Shown piece by piece: positions 6,671-58,882 of a stretch of 64,000 bases of DNA. The position numbers and the translations under genes were made by a program. Each line of letters opens with the position of its first letter. The first letter of the stretch is position 1. Source of the stretch: Streptococcus orisratti DSM 15617 (lineage in GTDB: Bacteria; Bacillota; Bacilli; Lactobacillales; Streptococcaceae). The notes under the pieces are model-generated. The model had not been told where the DNA came from. It ran no database searches and worked only from the letters and a program-made list of their open reading frames with translations. The DNA lies in NCBI RefSeq assembly GCF_000380105.1, contig NZ_KB904448.1:62001-126000 (forward strand). The letters run 5' to 3'.

Positions 6671-6887
6671 TTATATTATCTCCTGCATATTATTTTGCTT
6701 GAATTTCTATTTTGAATAGCATTCTAGGCAATAAAAAATGCAGGCCAAACCCCACAATGTGGCTTTTGGTCTGCATACATACAATTTGGAAACATTCATA
6801 TTAAAGACATAGTTAAATAAAGGTATAGTTAAATAACCAATATCCTCACCGTAACTAATGAATGCTCAATATCGTATAAATAAGCAC

Positions 6888-6928
6888 AACAAAAAAGCCT
6901 ATCATCGGGTATAGATTCTGCTTTTTTT
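6888..6928 (-). terminator. mef transcription attenuator
   Basis: On the minus strand AAAAAAAGC and CTAT pair with ATAG-GCTTTTTT around ACCCGATG, with a 5-base bulge (AGAAT) on one side. It follows the leader peptide stop closely. This is the known position of the mef attenuator, which macrolide-stalled ribosomes on the leader are reported to disable. Confidence 0.7.
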
Positions 6929-6937
6929 ATTGCCAGC

Positions 6938-6964
6938 TTATCTTAAACGCATTGAGGCTGTCAT
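6938..6964 (-). CDS. mef leader peptide MTASMRLR
   Basis: Minus-strand ATG ACA GCC TCA ATG CGT TTA AGA TAA encodes MTASMRLR, preceded by AGGAGG. It contains the R-L-R stalling motif known from erm and mef leaders. Stalling by 14/15-membered macrolides induces mef/msr(D). Confidence 0.9.
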   Translation of the reverse strand: MTASMRLR

Positions 6965-14836: not shown

Positions 14837-15269
14837 AGGTACTCCTTTGCTAAGGATTATTTTTTCACATTCTTTAGAAATCAAAACTCAGATATTATTA
14901 CTTTGATTGATGGCCTCAGTTCTATCTACATTAGCATCGCCCAGTTTGCCTTTGATATCATTGAGAATCACATATATACAGAGAAAAGTTTATTTCTTGC
15001 AAAAAAGTCATCAAGTAATTGAAAAGTGGTAAAAACATGCAAAACATTTCTGATTTTTATCTAGTTCCAATCCAAACAAGGTGCTTTGATTAGAGAAAAG
15101 GCAGTCTCATTTTACCACACTTCAAACACATTGCAACTCTTTTTAACAATTTAGCGACTAGATTATTACATTTGGTGTTTTAGTTTTTGTTTGGTAAGTA
15201 TTAGATGTTTTACTACACTGGAAATAACTTAAAAACTCCACTCAAAAAAGAAATAGAATATGCTATTTA
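14837..15269. other. non-coding gap with degenerate repeat
   Basis: No credible gene. The stretch from 14881 to about 14975 (CAGATATT...CTCAGTTCTATCTAC...ATTGAGAAT) resembles the interior of the 104-base ATACTC element found at 15270 but has lost its ends. The promoter of the barrel gene must be within the first 100 bases. Confidence 0.4.
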
Positions 15270-15373
15270 ATACTCTTTGAAAATCAAATTCAGACATTGT
15301 TGTCCTGATTTGATGAACTTCAGTTCAATCTACATCTACGTCGTCTAGTCTAATTTTAATTTTCATTGAGTAT
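15270..15373. repeat. 104-base ATACTC-ended intergenic element (RUP/MITE-like)
   Basis: Left end ATACTCTTTGAAAATCAAA and right end, read inverted, ATACTCAATGAAAATTAAAA give near-perfect terminal repeats; the interior is CAGACATTGTTGTCCTGATT-like. Same length and ends as 23686-23789, and a truncated near-identical copy occurs at 42061. Such elements are common between streptococcal genes. Confidence 0.75.
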
Positions 15374-19305: not shown

Positions 19306-19515
19306 TATAGTCATTTAGTTTATCTTTGATTACTTCAACGTAAGAGGAAACTCCGTTTCCTTATTTCCAACTTCAAACACTCCACTGGGTTGTTTGAACT
19401 CACTTTGCCGTACTTTACGAAAGTGACTTGCTTCGCATGTCTTATTTCCAACCTAGAACAGCCTAGAGGCTGTTCTAGCAACCTGCAGCTCGTTGCCTTG
19501 TACTAAAAGACTATA
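19306..19515. repeat. TATAGTC-ended element with two hairpin modules
   Basis: Ends TATAGTCATTTAGTTT-like and inverted TATAGTCTTTTAG-like flank a 210-base element shared with 58720-58882. Inside are two modules: GGAAAC-TCC-GTTTCC, linker TTATTTCCAAC, stem TTCAAACA/TGTTTGAA with ACT loop; then CGAA/TTCG, linker CTTATTTCCAACC and a perfect 11-base stem CTAGAACAGCC/GGCTGTTCTAG. No protein is encoded. Confidence 0.7.
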
Positions 19516-19541
19516 TAATAAAAAACTTGTAAAGGAAACTC

Positions 19542-20480
19542 ATGAACACTTTTGAAGATATTTTAGACCAAATCAAAACCTACGACACCATCATCATTCA
19601 CCGTCATCAACGTCCTGACCCTGATGCCATCGGAAGCCAGTGCGGCTTGCGTGAACTGCTACGCCACAATTTCCCAAACAAGCGTATCCTTGCGACTGGC
19701 ATCAACGAGCCAACCTTGACTTGGATGACAGAAATGGATGAGGTAACTGATGGCGACTACTTGAGTTCCCTGGTTATCGTGACCGACACAGCCAACACAG
19801 CTCGCATTGACGATGATCGCTACGGCAAGGGCAACTGCCTCATCAAGATTGACCATCACCCCAACGAGGATGTCTACGGCGACCTCCTCTACGTCGATAC
19901 AACTGCCTCTAGCGCCAGCGAGATTATCACCGATTTTGCTCTGAAGACTGGCCTTGAGCTCTCTAACAGCGCTGCTCGCCTCCTCTACACTGGCATTGTA
20001 GGTGACACCGGCCGCTTCCTCTATCCTGCCACAACCAGCAAGACCATGAGTATCGCCAGCACCCTGCGCAGTTACAATTTCAATTTTTCAGCCATTTCAC
20101 GACAGATGGATAGTTTCCCCTTCAAAATTGCTAAGCTTCAAGGCTACATTTTTGATAATCTTGAGGTTGATGAAAATGGAGCTGCGCGGGTTGTCCTGAC
20201 GCAGGAAACCATGAGAGCATTTGATGTGACTGAAGCTGAAACATCAGCAATTGTCAGTACCCCAGGTAAAATTGATTGCGTGCAATCATGGGCAATTTTC
20301 GTCCAACAAACTGATGGTCAATCTTACCGTGTACGCCTACGTAGCAAAAACGTCGTCATTAATGAAATTGCAAAACGCCACGACGGTGGCGGACATCCCT
20401 TAGCCAGCGGAGCCAATTCCTACAGCCTAGCTGAAAACGAGCAAATCTATCAAGAAATCAAAGATTTATTGAAAAAGTAA
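19542..20480 (+). CDS. DHH/DHHA1 phosphoesterase, NrnA-like
   Basis: 312 residues; AAAGGA before the ATG. DHH motifs in order: RPDPDAIGS (about 24-32), VTDTANT, IDHHP (about 104-108), then TGIVGDTGRFLYP; the C-terminal DHHA1 domain ends with RHDGGGHPLASG. The family includes NrnA (nanoRNase and pAp phosphatase) and c-di-AMP/pApA hydrolases such as Pde2 of S. pneumoniae; sequence alone does not separate them. The gene is richer in GC than its flanks. It is directly upstream of rpmE2. Confidence 0.9.
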   Translation: MNTFEDILDQIKTYDTIIIHRHQRPDPDAIGSQCGLRELLRHNFPNKRILATGINEPTLTWMTEMDEVTDGDYLSSLVIVTDTANTARIDDDRYGKGNCLIKIDHHPNEDVYGDLLYVDTTASSASEIITDFALKTGLELSNSAARLLYTGIVGDTGRFLYPATTSKTMSIASTLRSYNFNFSAISRQMDSFPFKIAKLQGYIFDNLEVDENGAARVVLTQETMRAFDVTEAETSAIVSTPGKIDCVQSWAIFVQQTDGQSYRVRLRSKNVVINEIAKRHDGGGHPLASGANSYSLAENEQIYQEIKDLLKK

Positions 20481-23685: not shown

Positions 23686-23789
23686 ATACTCAATGAAAAT
23701 CAAAAGTAGCCTAGGAAACGAAGCCGACGATAGAACTTGAGTTCATCAAGGCAAGTTGACAACAGATAATTTTGATTTTCGAAGAGTAT
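23686..23789. repeat. 104-base ATACTC-ended element, second copy
   Basis: Left end ATACTCAATGAAAATCAAAA; right end, inverted, ATACTCTTCGAAAATCAAAA. Same length and terminal repeats as 15270-15373 but opposite orientation and a different interior (GATAGAACTTGAGTTCATCA). It lies between smpB and the CHAP gene. Confidence 0.75.
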
Positions 23790-33737: not shown

Positions 33738-34014
33738 AATTAATATATAAGGACGTAAACCACAAAACGACATTAGGCTTGAGGTGTATCATCAAGCATG
33801 TGGTCATGTTCAATCAACTGCCTACACAAATTTGTAGACACTGATTATCCTTATTCCTTCCCTTTGTTTTCGATATCTCTAACTATTTTATTATATCACA
33901 AGAAGAAAGAAAAAGGGAGCACGAAGAAACCTCAAGCCAAATTGAGGCTGAGCAAAAAGCCCAGCACCGCTTCTCAGAGTTCTTGTCAACATCTCATCGC
34001 AGTGGTTGATTGGG

Positions 34015-34210
34015 TTTAACAGTCCAGTGGACTGTTAAAGGTTGGAGATAAGGTTTGCGAAGCAAATCTCAGCAATTCGTGTTTCACACTCCAAATCTGA
34101 CCTCTACGACTGATGCGAACAGAGTTCGCTTCATTTCCAACCTCAAAAGGTTCACTGAACCTTTTGAGATGTGCGGGGGTGGGAGTAAAATAGTCCAGTG
34201 GACTATTTTA
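34015..34210. repeat. cluster of three hairpins with two-hairpin modules
   Basis: In the 630-base gap before the DUF1846 gene. Perfect stems: TTTAACAGTCC/GGACTGTTAAA (34015-34039, loop AGT), CTCAAAAGGTTCA/TGAACCTTTTGAG (34142-34168, one-base spacer) and TAAAATAGTCC/GGACTATTTTA (34186-34210, loop AGT). The second is preceded by GCGAAC/GTTCGC and TTCATTTCCAACC; the first carries the same arrangement on the minus strand (TTTGC/GCAAA and CTTATCTCCAACC). Upstream, 33940-34015 has no gene and resembles 57320-57400. Nothing else was recognised in 33738-34367. Confidence 0.7.
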
Positions 34211-34367
34211 GCCTGAACCTAGATGTTTGGAAGTGAGGAGAACTCTTTTTGACTTATTGAGGGTAACTGAATTAGCTACTTAAAAAATTTTCTATCAAAC
34301 TTAGAATTTGATATAATAAGGTATTAACTTTGGAAAGGAAGATTTGGGTTCGCGCCCACTCTATCAC

Positions 34368-42060: not shown

Positions 42061-42122
42061 ATACTCTTTGAAAATCAAATTCAGATATTGTTGTCCTGAT
42101 TTGATGAACTTCAGTTCTATCC
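42061..42122. repeat. truncated ATACTC-ended element
   Basis: ATACTCTTTGAAAATCAAAT followed by CAGATATTGTTGTCCTGATT and GATGAACTTCAGTTCTATC, nearly identical to the first half of 15270-15373; the right half and right end are missing. It lies in the 280-base gap between tex and fruA, which otherwise holds only the tex promoter region and the fruA terminator. Confidence 0.7.
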
Positions 42123-57200: not shown

Positions 57201-57485
57201 AAACTCTTTAAAAATCAACTACAGACATCGTTGACTTAGAATGAATGTTACGCTAAATGCTTGCTCACCGAAAATTGAAAGTAGCAAAGTTCTATTGATA
57301 CGAACTAGGGTCACTTCATTTTCAACTTTCAACGAGACTAGGCAAAAGTCCAACACCTCTTCATAGAGTTAGTGTCAACAACTCAGTGCAGTGGTTGATT
57401 GTTATATTTGTTTGTGTTTTACACTCCAAATCTGATCTATACGGCTGTTGCGAACGAGTTCGCTCTATTTCCCACCCCCATTGAG
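57201..57485. repeat. decayed repeat cluster
   Basis: Starts with AAACTCTTTAAAAATCAAC and CAGACATCGTTG, a diverged end of the 104-base element. Continues with GTGTCAACAACTCAGTGCAG and GTGGTTGATTG, shared with 33985-34015. Then ACACTCCAAATCTGATCTAT and GCGAAC/GTTCGC followed by CTATTTCCCACC, a decayed form of the two-hairpin module whose second hairpin is lost. No gene. Confidence 0.6.
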
Positions 57486-57491
57486 GTTAGT

Positions 57492-58196
57492 TTAATTTGG
57501 ATTTCCATTGTGTGCTAACAAATTTTTCAATTCTTGATAATTTTTGATGGTATAAGTGGGAATGGCAGAGCTATCATTGCTAATTTCCTTTGGATTGTAC
57601 CAAGCAGTGTCAATTCCAGCGTTATTCCCACCTTGAATATCTGCTAAAAGGCTGTCACCCACCATCAAAGCTCTGCTATTGTCAAATCCAAGAGTATCCG
57701 AAGCAATCCAATCAAAGAAAGCTTTATCCGGCTTTTGCAATCCAGTTGCTCCGGAAATAAAGACACGTTCAAAGAATCCACCAATTTCCGAAACCGCTAA
57801 GCGCCCTTCTTGTATAGACTGGATACCATTAGTCGCACCTAAAACTCTATAACCATGTTCATCCAAATTCTCCAAAAGTTCCTTGGCACCATCAAAAGTT
57901 TGTCCTTGCTGACTTAAAAAGGTCTGATAACGTTGCGCAAAGGCCTTACCATCAACCTCTTGACCAAAATGAGCAAAGAGCCTAGAAAACCGTGTCTCAA
58001 CCACTTCCTTTTTACTAATTTGCTTCAAAGATAAGGCATCCCATAAGGCTTTATTCATGGGAACATAATAGTCCTTGTAAGCCTGCACATCAGCGACTCG
58101 CGCTTCTTGCAAAAGTTCTGTCAAAGCCACATCCTCTGCTGCATCAAAATCAAGCAAGGTGTGATCAAGATCGAATAGTAGAAATTTGTAAGACAA
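57492..58196 (-). CDS. YjjG-like HAD phosphatase (noncanonical pyrimidine nucleotidase)
   Basis: 234 residues. HAD motif I LFDLDHTLLDFD, motif II LGATNG, Lys in GLQKPDKAFFDWI, motif III MVGDSLLADIQGGNNAG. The length and cap match the YjjG/YfnB group that dephosphorylates nucleoside monophosphates. Monocistronic. Confidence 0.9.
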   Translation of the reverse strand: MSYKFLLFDLDHTLLDFDAAEDVALTELLQEARVADVQAYKDYYVPMNKALWDALSLKQISKKEVVETRFSRLFAHFGQEVDGKAFAQRYQTFLSQQGQTFDGAKELLENLDEHGYRVLGATNGIQSIQEGRLAVSEIGGFFERVFISGATGLQKPDKAFFDWIASDTLGFDNSRALMVGDSLLADIQGGNNAGIDTAWYNPKEISNDSSAIPTYTIKNYQELKNLLAHNGNPN

Positions 58197-58719: not shown

Positions 58720-58882
58720 TATAGTCAATTAGTTTATCTTTGATTTCTTCAACGTAAGAGGAAACTCCGTCTCCTTATTTCCGAGTTCAAACACTCCACT
58801 GGATTGTTTGAACTCGCCTTGCCGTACTCCAGTACTGCCTACAGCCCGTTACCTTGTACTAAAAGCAAACTAAAAGACTATA
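58720..58882. repeat. TATAGTC-ended element, second copy
   Basis: Same ends as 19306-19515 (TATAGTCAATTAGTTT, and inverted TATAGTCTTTTAGTTT). It holds one two-hairpin module: GGA-AC/GT-TCC, linker TTATTTCC, then an extended stem GAGTTCAAACA/TGTTTGAACTC with the TCC-ACT-GGA centre. About 50 bases shorter than the first copy because the second module is missing. Confidence 0.75.

What the first reader, a model, noticed from the sequence alone, without database searches (positions are those of the whole stretch)
19346..19478. Two-hairpin repeat module with covarying stems around a constant CTTATTTCCAAC linker
In at least five places (19346-19398, 19418-19478, 34015-34066 on the minus strand, 34115-34168, 58760-58815; decayed at 57450-57475) the same order recurs: a short first hairpin, a linker close to CTTATTTCCAAC, then a longer second hairpin with an ACT/AGT-type loop. 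The stem sequences differ (CAAACA, AGAACAGCC, TTTAACAGTCC, CTCAAAAGGTTCA) while pairing stays near-perfect. Conserved structure with changing stems implies selection on the fold or a generation mechanism that copies hairpins. It is found inside different host repeats, so it behaves as a module in its own right. I do not recognise it as BOX, RUP or SPRITE.
Basis: seen in the sequence. Interest (0 to 1): 0.65.

Follow-up and report, generated by a model that had tools for sequence, protein, structure and literature searches.

The report
boxB hairpin module of BOX repeats
The repeated pair of DNA hairpins is the known middle unit (boxB) of BOX-type repeats, small mobile DNA elements scattered through many streptococcal genomes; it is a known kind of thing in another host, with some hints about how it moves and why its stems stay paired.

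Summary
In detail: all five two-hairpin copies are present, and a covariance model finds the three copies outside its training set. Stems covary between subfamilies. The claim that it is not BOX is wrong. The module is boxB of BOX-type elements: the same model picks out boxB in canonical boxA-boxB-boxC elements of S. oralis DD15 and S. peroris, which carry an exact BOXA2R primer site. It gives 125, 86 and 89 matches in three S. suis genomes, where loci show A-(D)-B(n)-C arrays and a 116-bp E-type end, as Croucher et al. 2011 describe. The host repeat at 19306-19515 is mobile: three other genomes show the empty site, implying a TA duplication. IS630-family elements in related genomes have similar ends, strongly for the ATACTC class, weakly for the window's TAGTC class; four of nine genomes searched have no such transposase. 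Pairing is almost purely Watson-Crick with no G.T excess over A.C, and 19 recent copies show no compensated change, so selection on a host RNA fold is not supported. New member of a known kind.

The parts
19306..19515 (+). BOX-type element 'alpha' with two boxB modules; TA copies at 19306-19307 and 19514-19515 flank TAGTC...GACTA
   Evidence: genome-wide repeat, copy alignment, empty sites in L295, L296, L292
19345..19400 (+). boxB-type module 1 of alpha
   Evidence: R1 46.7 bits, E 1.4e-9
19424..19480 (+). boxB-type module 2 of alpha
   Evidence: R1 51.6 bits, E 7.1e-11
33944..34240 (+). second host repeat 'beta', E/F-type, with one inverted and one direct module
   Evidence: seven further genome places covering at least 165 of the 301 queried bases, alignment, 87-89% in S. 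suis phage records
34012..34069 (-). boxB-type module, inverted in beta
   Evidence: R1 76.3 bits, in the training set
34113..34170 (+). boxB-type module, direct in beta
   Evidence: R1 78.4 bits, in the training set
58720..58882 (+). alpha-type element with a single boxB module (A-B-C)
   Evidence: TATAGTC...GACTATA ends read; repeat D1
58759..58814 (+). boxB-type module of the 58.7-kb element
   Evidence: R1 36.7 bits, E 7.1e-7
57344..57498 (+). remnant of a beta-type repeat, hairpin 1 and linker kept
   Evidence: repeats D5, D6, D10; no R1 match at E 0.01
15270..15373 (+). module-free BOX-like element 'gamma' (ATACTC...GAGTAT)
   Evidence: 43 matches in the genome, 40 of 129 candidates scored; alignment
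23686..23789 (-). gamma element
   Evidence: inverted repeat I1 with 15268-15373; sequence
42061..42121 (+). left part of a gamma element
   Evidence: repeat D3, L099

Best explanation
The module is boxB, the internal, tandemly repeatable two-hairpin unit of BOX-type elements: small composite mobile elements without genes that insert at TA and are most likely moved in trans by a transposase, with the IS630 family the best candidate. boxB is a passenger shared between different end pairs (A/C and E/F types) and varies in number by unit gain or loss. Shown here: sequence-plus-structure identity with boxB, variation in module number, an empty site with TA duplication for the window element, covariation between subfamilies. 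Inferred: which transposase acts; that pairing is kept in the source copies that spread, while dispersed copies collect one-sided changes.
For: R1 picks boxB in canonical BOX elements of S. oralis DD15 (L146, E 5.2e-8) and S. peroris (L137, E 6e-7); their boxA holds the BOXA2R site 22/22 and BOXA1R at 19/22 and 14/22. R1 gives 125, 86 and 89 matches in three S. suis genomes and 0 in S. agalactiae, 150 candidates scored in each. S. suis loci show six modules in tandem at 55-bp spacing between A-like and C-like ends (L210) and an E-like end of 116 bp (L118), as in Croucher et al. 2011. Alpha occurs with two modules and with one within the window. Empty site: CATGATATAAT in L295, L296, L292 against CATGTTA[TAGTC...GACTA]TATAAT. 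A ~1.1-kb IS630-family element in G025 is 17/20 and 18/20 identical to the left and right ends of gamma. 17 of 17 distinct stem variants in 19 alpha copies are one-sided, whereas subfamilies differ by compensated pairs.
Against: Alpha has no pneumococcal boxA (best 12/22 and 13/22 to the BOXA primers on the + strand) and different ends. The 900-bp IS resembles alpha in only 6-9 of the outer 9 bases and 7-11 of 20. G002, G005, G008 and G011 carry modules (86, 23, 128 and 127 matches) but gave no PF13358 match, so the mover in those genomes is unknown. The ~1.1-kb IS matches the S. oralis BOX at only 13/20 on the left (17/20 right), and its right end also matches gamma's left end at 17/20. Stems vary less than the rest of alpha (0.29 against 0.64 variant cells per site, loops 1.0), which could mean constraint after insertion. 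The published box HMMs could not be run.
Confidence: 0.85

Rival explanations
1. The hairpins are functional RNA: transcribed within mRNA leaders or 3' ends, they attenuate, stabilise or are processed, and selection for the RNA fold drives compensatory change.
For: Strong predicted fold of alpha (z -5.2); covariation between subfamilies; stems less variable than the rest within alpha; BOX elements are transcribed in S. pneumoniae (PMC3049150 section 9).
Against: No G.T excess: 35 G.T, 59 A.C in 6662 pairs of 365 modules; 19 and 27 in 1823 pairs of 196 distinct hairpins. Split by flanking gene direction: sense 6 and 12, antisense 3 and 4. In G.U-permissive model alignments G.U is 13 of 1654 and 30 of 1474 cells, against 40 of 577 pairs in 27 tRNAs. 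No compensated variant in 19 alpha copies.
Confidence: 0.1
2. Pairing is renewed at DNA level by arm copying (template switching at the palindrome), so stems covary without selection for any fold.
For: Almost exclusively Watson-Crick stems with G.T and A.C alike; 23 compensated variants beside 44 one-sided ones within clusters of near relatives; two symmetric haplotypes at leuS ends.
Against: None of 17 distinct stem variants in 19 alpha copies is compensated, only two restore a pair at an already mismatched position, so renewal is not fast; single-position compensations are common between subfamilies.
Confidence: 0.1
3. A separate, unnamed module family that only resembles boxB in layout.
For: Ends of alpha and beta differ from the pneumococcal BOX ends.
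Against: Sequence-plus-structure matches to canonical boxB, the AC/EF/B/D arrangement in S. suis and the BOX-like gamma class in the same genome.
Confidence: 0.03

Closest known systems
BOX-type repeat families of Streptococcus suis (Croucher et al. 2011, PMC3049150, section 7)
   Same: boxB-like modules shared between A/C-type and E/F-type ends; tandem B arrays; D-like part beside B; E-like end 116 bp against a stated mean of 115; alpha and beta occur in S. suis records
   Different: Host here is another, unnamed streptococcus; alpha has two unlike modules and TAGTC...GACTA ends; beta carries an inverted module inside the E part that S. suis L118 lacks
Pneumococcal/mitis BOX element (boxA-boxB(n)-boxC)
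   Same: boxB matched by R1 in S. oralis and S. peroris elements; gamma shares the ATACTC...GAGTAT ends
   Different: Alpha lacks a pneumococcal boxA and has other ends; its modules are longer than the 45 bp given for pneumococcal boxB (PMC1315331 passages)
RUP, moved by IS630-Spn1 (as cited in PMC3049150)
   Same: Works alike: short gene-less element proposed to be moved in trans by an IS630-family transposase
   Different: A simple ~107-bp repeat without exchangeable modules; no RUP sequence was compared here

Membership tests
BOX-type elements, boxB module | Sequence and two-hairpin structure of boxB | tested here: met
   R1 matches boxB in canonical elements L146 (E 5.2e-8) and L137 (E 6e-7)
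BOX-type elements, boxB module | Variable number of B modules, tandem arrays between end modules | tested here: met
   Two modules at 19.3 kb, one at 58.7 kb; six in tandem in S. suis L210
BOX-type elements, boxB module | Score above threshold with the published box HMMs | not testable with these tools
Pneumococcal BOX | boxA sequence | tested here: not met
   Alpha: best 12/22 (BOXA1R) and 13/22 (BOXA2R), + strand of the element
Pneumococcal BOX | ATACTC...GAGTAT ends | tested here: not met
   Alpha starts TATAGTC in 13 of 21 aligned copies and ends GACTATA in 13 of 21, the rest variants or cut; gamma does have ATACTC...GAGTAT
S. suis BOX-type families | A and C ends of about 50 nt | tested here: met
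   Alpha: 40 nt before module 1 and 48 nt (31 + 17) after module 2 on the consensus
S. suis BOX-type families | boxE about 115 nt, boxF about 133 nt | tested here: inconclusive
   S. suis L118: 116 bp before and 108 bp after the module, the far end chosen by eye
Non-autonomous IS630-type element (MITE) | TA duplication on insertion | tested here: met
   Empty sites in L295, L296, L292, 3 of 9 stretches printed; the spacer has diverged and one flanking base differs
Non-autonomous IS630-type element (MITE) | Ends shared with an autonomous element | tested here: inconclusive
   Gamma 17/20 and 18/20 to a ~1.1-kb IS; alpha 6-9 of 9 and 7-11 of 20 to a 900-bp IS; no PF13358 match in 4 of 9 genomes
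SPRITE | 18-bp duplex followed by a U-rich tract | tested here: not met
   Second hairpins have 11-12 pairs and no T tract follows them in the five window copies
Rfam families | Match at gathering score | tested here: not met
   Window matches: sRNA_1300 and two tRNAs only

The most novel reading that the evidence does not exclude
boxB stems stay Watson-Crick through a DNA-level requirement or process (hairpin DNA used during transposition, or arm copying) and not through RNA function; boxB would then be a natural record of palindrome upkeep in a mobile element, able to take host sequence as a stem arm, as the leuS 3' ends suggest.
Probability: 0.2. Interest if true: 0.55.

Novelty: new member of a known kind. 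Interest (0 to 1): 0.32.

Why it matters
It files an unrecognised repeat under a known family and finds its modules in streptococci beyond S. pneumoniae, S. mitis and S. suis, to which the 2011 survey largely confined BOX. It also makes an open point testable: whether the paired stems of BOX matter as RNA or at DNA level, and which IS moves these elements.

Tried and rejected
The linker alone as evidence: barely above chance. Rfam: no family for the module. RNA-fold selection by G.T excess: not seen. Naming the window species: one genome-contig scan gave at most 79% identity of the DHH protein (S. equinus), and records near the window genome may be left out; other window proteins did not settle it. 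An IS in the window genome with exactly alpha's ends: seven IS630 fragments there end AACTATA and one starts TATAGTA, near but not GACTATA/TATAGTC. A wholesale pneumococcal BOX assignment of alpha: rejected, boxA not found.

Limits: at most 150 candidates per genome were scored with R1, so the counts are lower bounds. Alignments A3-A6 were fitted to R1's structure. The Watson-Crick-only scan also requires hairpins, so near-perfect pairing is partly a condition of detection; the G.T to A.C comparison is not affected by that. L020 and L021 (no 5' part) were dropped before the within-family count, leaving 19 of 21. Some of the 365 modules come from overlapping loci; distinct hairpins were counted and 343 distinct inner modules. 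The tRNA control shows no A.C because the program brackets accepted pairs only. The single empty-site test was done for one of the window's elements only. Published box sequences were known to me only through primers and text, and the original BOX paper was not held.

Full report
What was checked. A covariance model R1, built from 12 modules of the 34-kb type, scores the three copies outside its training set at E 1.4e-9, 7.1e-11 and 7.1e-7 in a 607-kb search. The linker by itself is barely above chance. The decayed copy near 57450 lies in a remnant of the 34-kb repeat (D5 and D6) and gives no R1 match at E 0.01.

What surrounds it. The 19346-19478 module pair sits in a repeat here called alpha, window 19306-19515, with 19 near-complete places in the 2.4-Mb genome and two lacking the first ~58 query bases. 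Of the 21 aligned copies 13 start TATAGTC and 13 end GACTATA; the rest are variants or cut. The element at 58720-58882 has the same ends but one module. The 34-kb modules, one inverted and one direct, lie in a second repeat, beta, with seven further genome places covering at least 165 of 301 queried bases. A third class, gamma, about 108 bp with ATACTC...GAGTAT ends and no module, has 43 matches with 40 of 129 candidates scored.

Identity. R1 was run over twelve genomes: three S. suis (125, 86, 89 matches at E 0.01), S. hillyeri 128, sp. ZJ373 127, S. varani 43, sp. DD10 26, S. oralis DD15 23, S. equinus 7, S. peroris 5, S. agalactiae 0, and the window genome 86; 150 candidates were scored in each. 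In S. oralis DD15 (L146) and S. peroris (L137) the match is boxB of a canonical BOX element. Their boxA contains the BOXA2R primer site exactly, and BOXA1R at 19/22 and 14/22 (primers from passages of PMC7291552; identities; 2 of 342 loci held then have the exact site). In S. suis the modules form arrays such as six units at 55-bp spacing between A-like and C-like ends with a D-like part (L210), and L118 has an E-like end of 116 bp. Croucher et al. 2011 (PMC3049150; abstract, background and sections 5, 6, 7, 9, 10 and 13 read) describe two S. suis BOX families, with A/C or E (mean 115 nt)/F (mean 133 nt) ends around the same boxB, and D modules always in addition to B. Alpha also matches an S. 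suis plasmid record at 81%, and beta two S. suis phage records at 87% and 89% plus a short piece in a third phage record.

Mobility. In other genomes the two genes flanking the 19.3-kb element lie about 200 bp closer, for example G148, where the spacer between the two matches is 98 bp against 300 in the window. Of nine stretches printed, three (L295, L296, L292) show CATGATATAAT where the window has CATGTTA[TAGTC...GACTA]TATAAT: a TA duplication, right at the TATAAT box before the DHH gene, with one flanking base different. L289 keeps the gene pair without the element but its spacer is too diverged to read; the other five did not show this junction. DDE_3 (PF13358) transposases occur in the window genome (12 matches, 11 over the cut-off) and in 5 of 9 related genomes; G002, G005, G008 and G011, all with modules, gave none. 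A ~1.1-kb IS in G025 has ends 17/20 and 18/20 identical to gamma's left and right ends (cross-comparisons 14/20 and 17/20; against the S. oralis BOX 13/20 and 17/20). A 900-bp IS in G033 has TATAGTT...GACTATA ends, alike to alpha over 6-9 of 9 bases but 7-11 of 20. Relatives of the 900-bp IS lie in two of the three S. suis genomes and, as fragments, in the window genome. Croucher et al. cite a low similarity between BOX ends and ISSpn2; whether the ~1.1-kb IS is ISSpn2 was not established.

Covariation. On 91 distinct S. suis rows 92.9% of cells pair, against 73.9% in shuffles, and 16 of 19 pairs change on both sides. On 80 distinct rows, from the window genome for a large part, 92.5% against 70.5%, and 18 of 19 pairs. 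These alignments were fitted to the structure. Detection that scores only Watson-Crick pairs gave 365 modules with 35 G.T, 59 A.C and 126 other mismatches among 6662 stem pairs; over 196 distinct hairpins, 19 G.T, 27 A.C and 41 others in 1823 pairs. By flanking gene direction: sense 6 G.T and 12 A.C, antisense 3 and 4. In the G.U-permissive model alignments G.U makes up 13 of 1654 and 30 of 1474 cells; in 27 distinct tRNA genes from the same loci it is 40 of 577 pairs. Within clusters of near relatives, 23 compensated variants stand beside 18 G.T, 18 A.C and 8 other one-sided ones. Among 19 full alpha copies all 17 distinct stem variants are one-sided; stems carry 0.29 variant cells per site, loops 1.0, the rest 0.64.

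Reading. Pairs change on both sides between subfamilies but not among recent alpha copies, and there is no sign of G.U tolerance on either strand. This fits upkeep of the hairpins in the source copies that spread, and does not support a host RNA function in dispersed copies. The lower stem variation in alpha copies speaks the other way and leaves room for constraint or repair after insertion. Which step of transposition, if any, uses the hairpins is not known. In the library, the three searches for BOX-type repeats in S. suis and other streptococci listed no paper other than PMC3049150 that was seen to describe BOX-type repeats of S. suis; only 12 of 1,015 papers were listed, and papers not held were not seen.

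Noticed in passing
L125, L127, L247-L276 (leuS 3' ends in S. oralis, S. peroris and unnamed genus members): A related hairpin-linker-hairpin block sits at the stop codon of leuS: its first stem pairs with the leuS coding tail, in two main haplotypes with matching changes in both arms (a few mixed ones, e.g. L261, L265, L269), followed by a second copy of the leuS tail. Other genomes, e.g. G100 and G043, look empty at this place.
   Followed up: partly
19509-19542: The alpha insertion ends at the TATAAT before the DHH phosphoesterase gene, so the element now supplies the sequence upstream of that box.
   Followed up: partly
L314 (900 bp, G033) and L320 (~1.1 kb, G025): IS630-family elements, each with two open frames, whose ends resemble those of alpha and gamma respectively.
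   Followed up: partly
6731-6961 (-): Rfam sRNA_1300 (described in Enterococcus), 275 bits.
   Followed up: no
L019 and L036: Nested repeats: an alpha copy starting at the GAGTAT end of a BOX-like element, and a beta copy beside an alpha left end.
   Followed up: no
343 distinct modules in fetched loci: Flanking genes: 140 modules sense, 73 antisense, 93 between convergent genes, 22 between divergent genes, 15 at locus edges; modules of one element were counted apart.
   Followed up: no
L343 (NZ_CP135066.1), L344 (OP662532.1): BOX-type elements in an S. suis plasmid record, beside aroB (unusual for a plasmid), and in an S. suis phage genome; neither stretch is annotated there.
   Followed up: no
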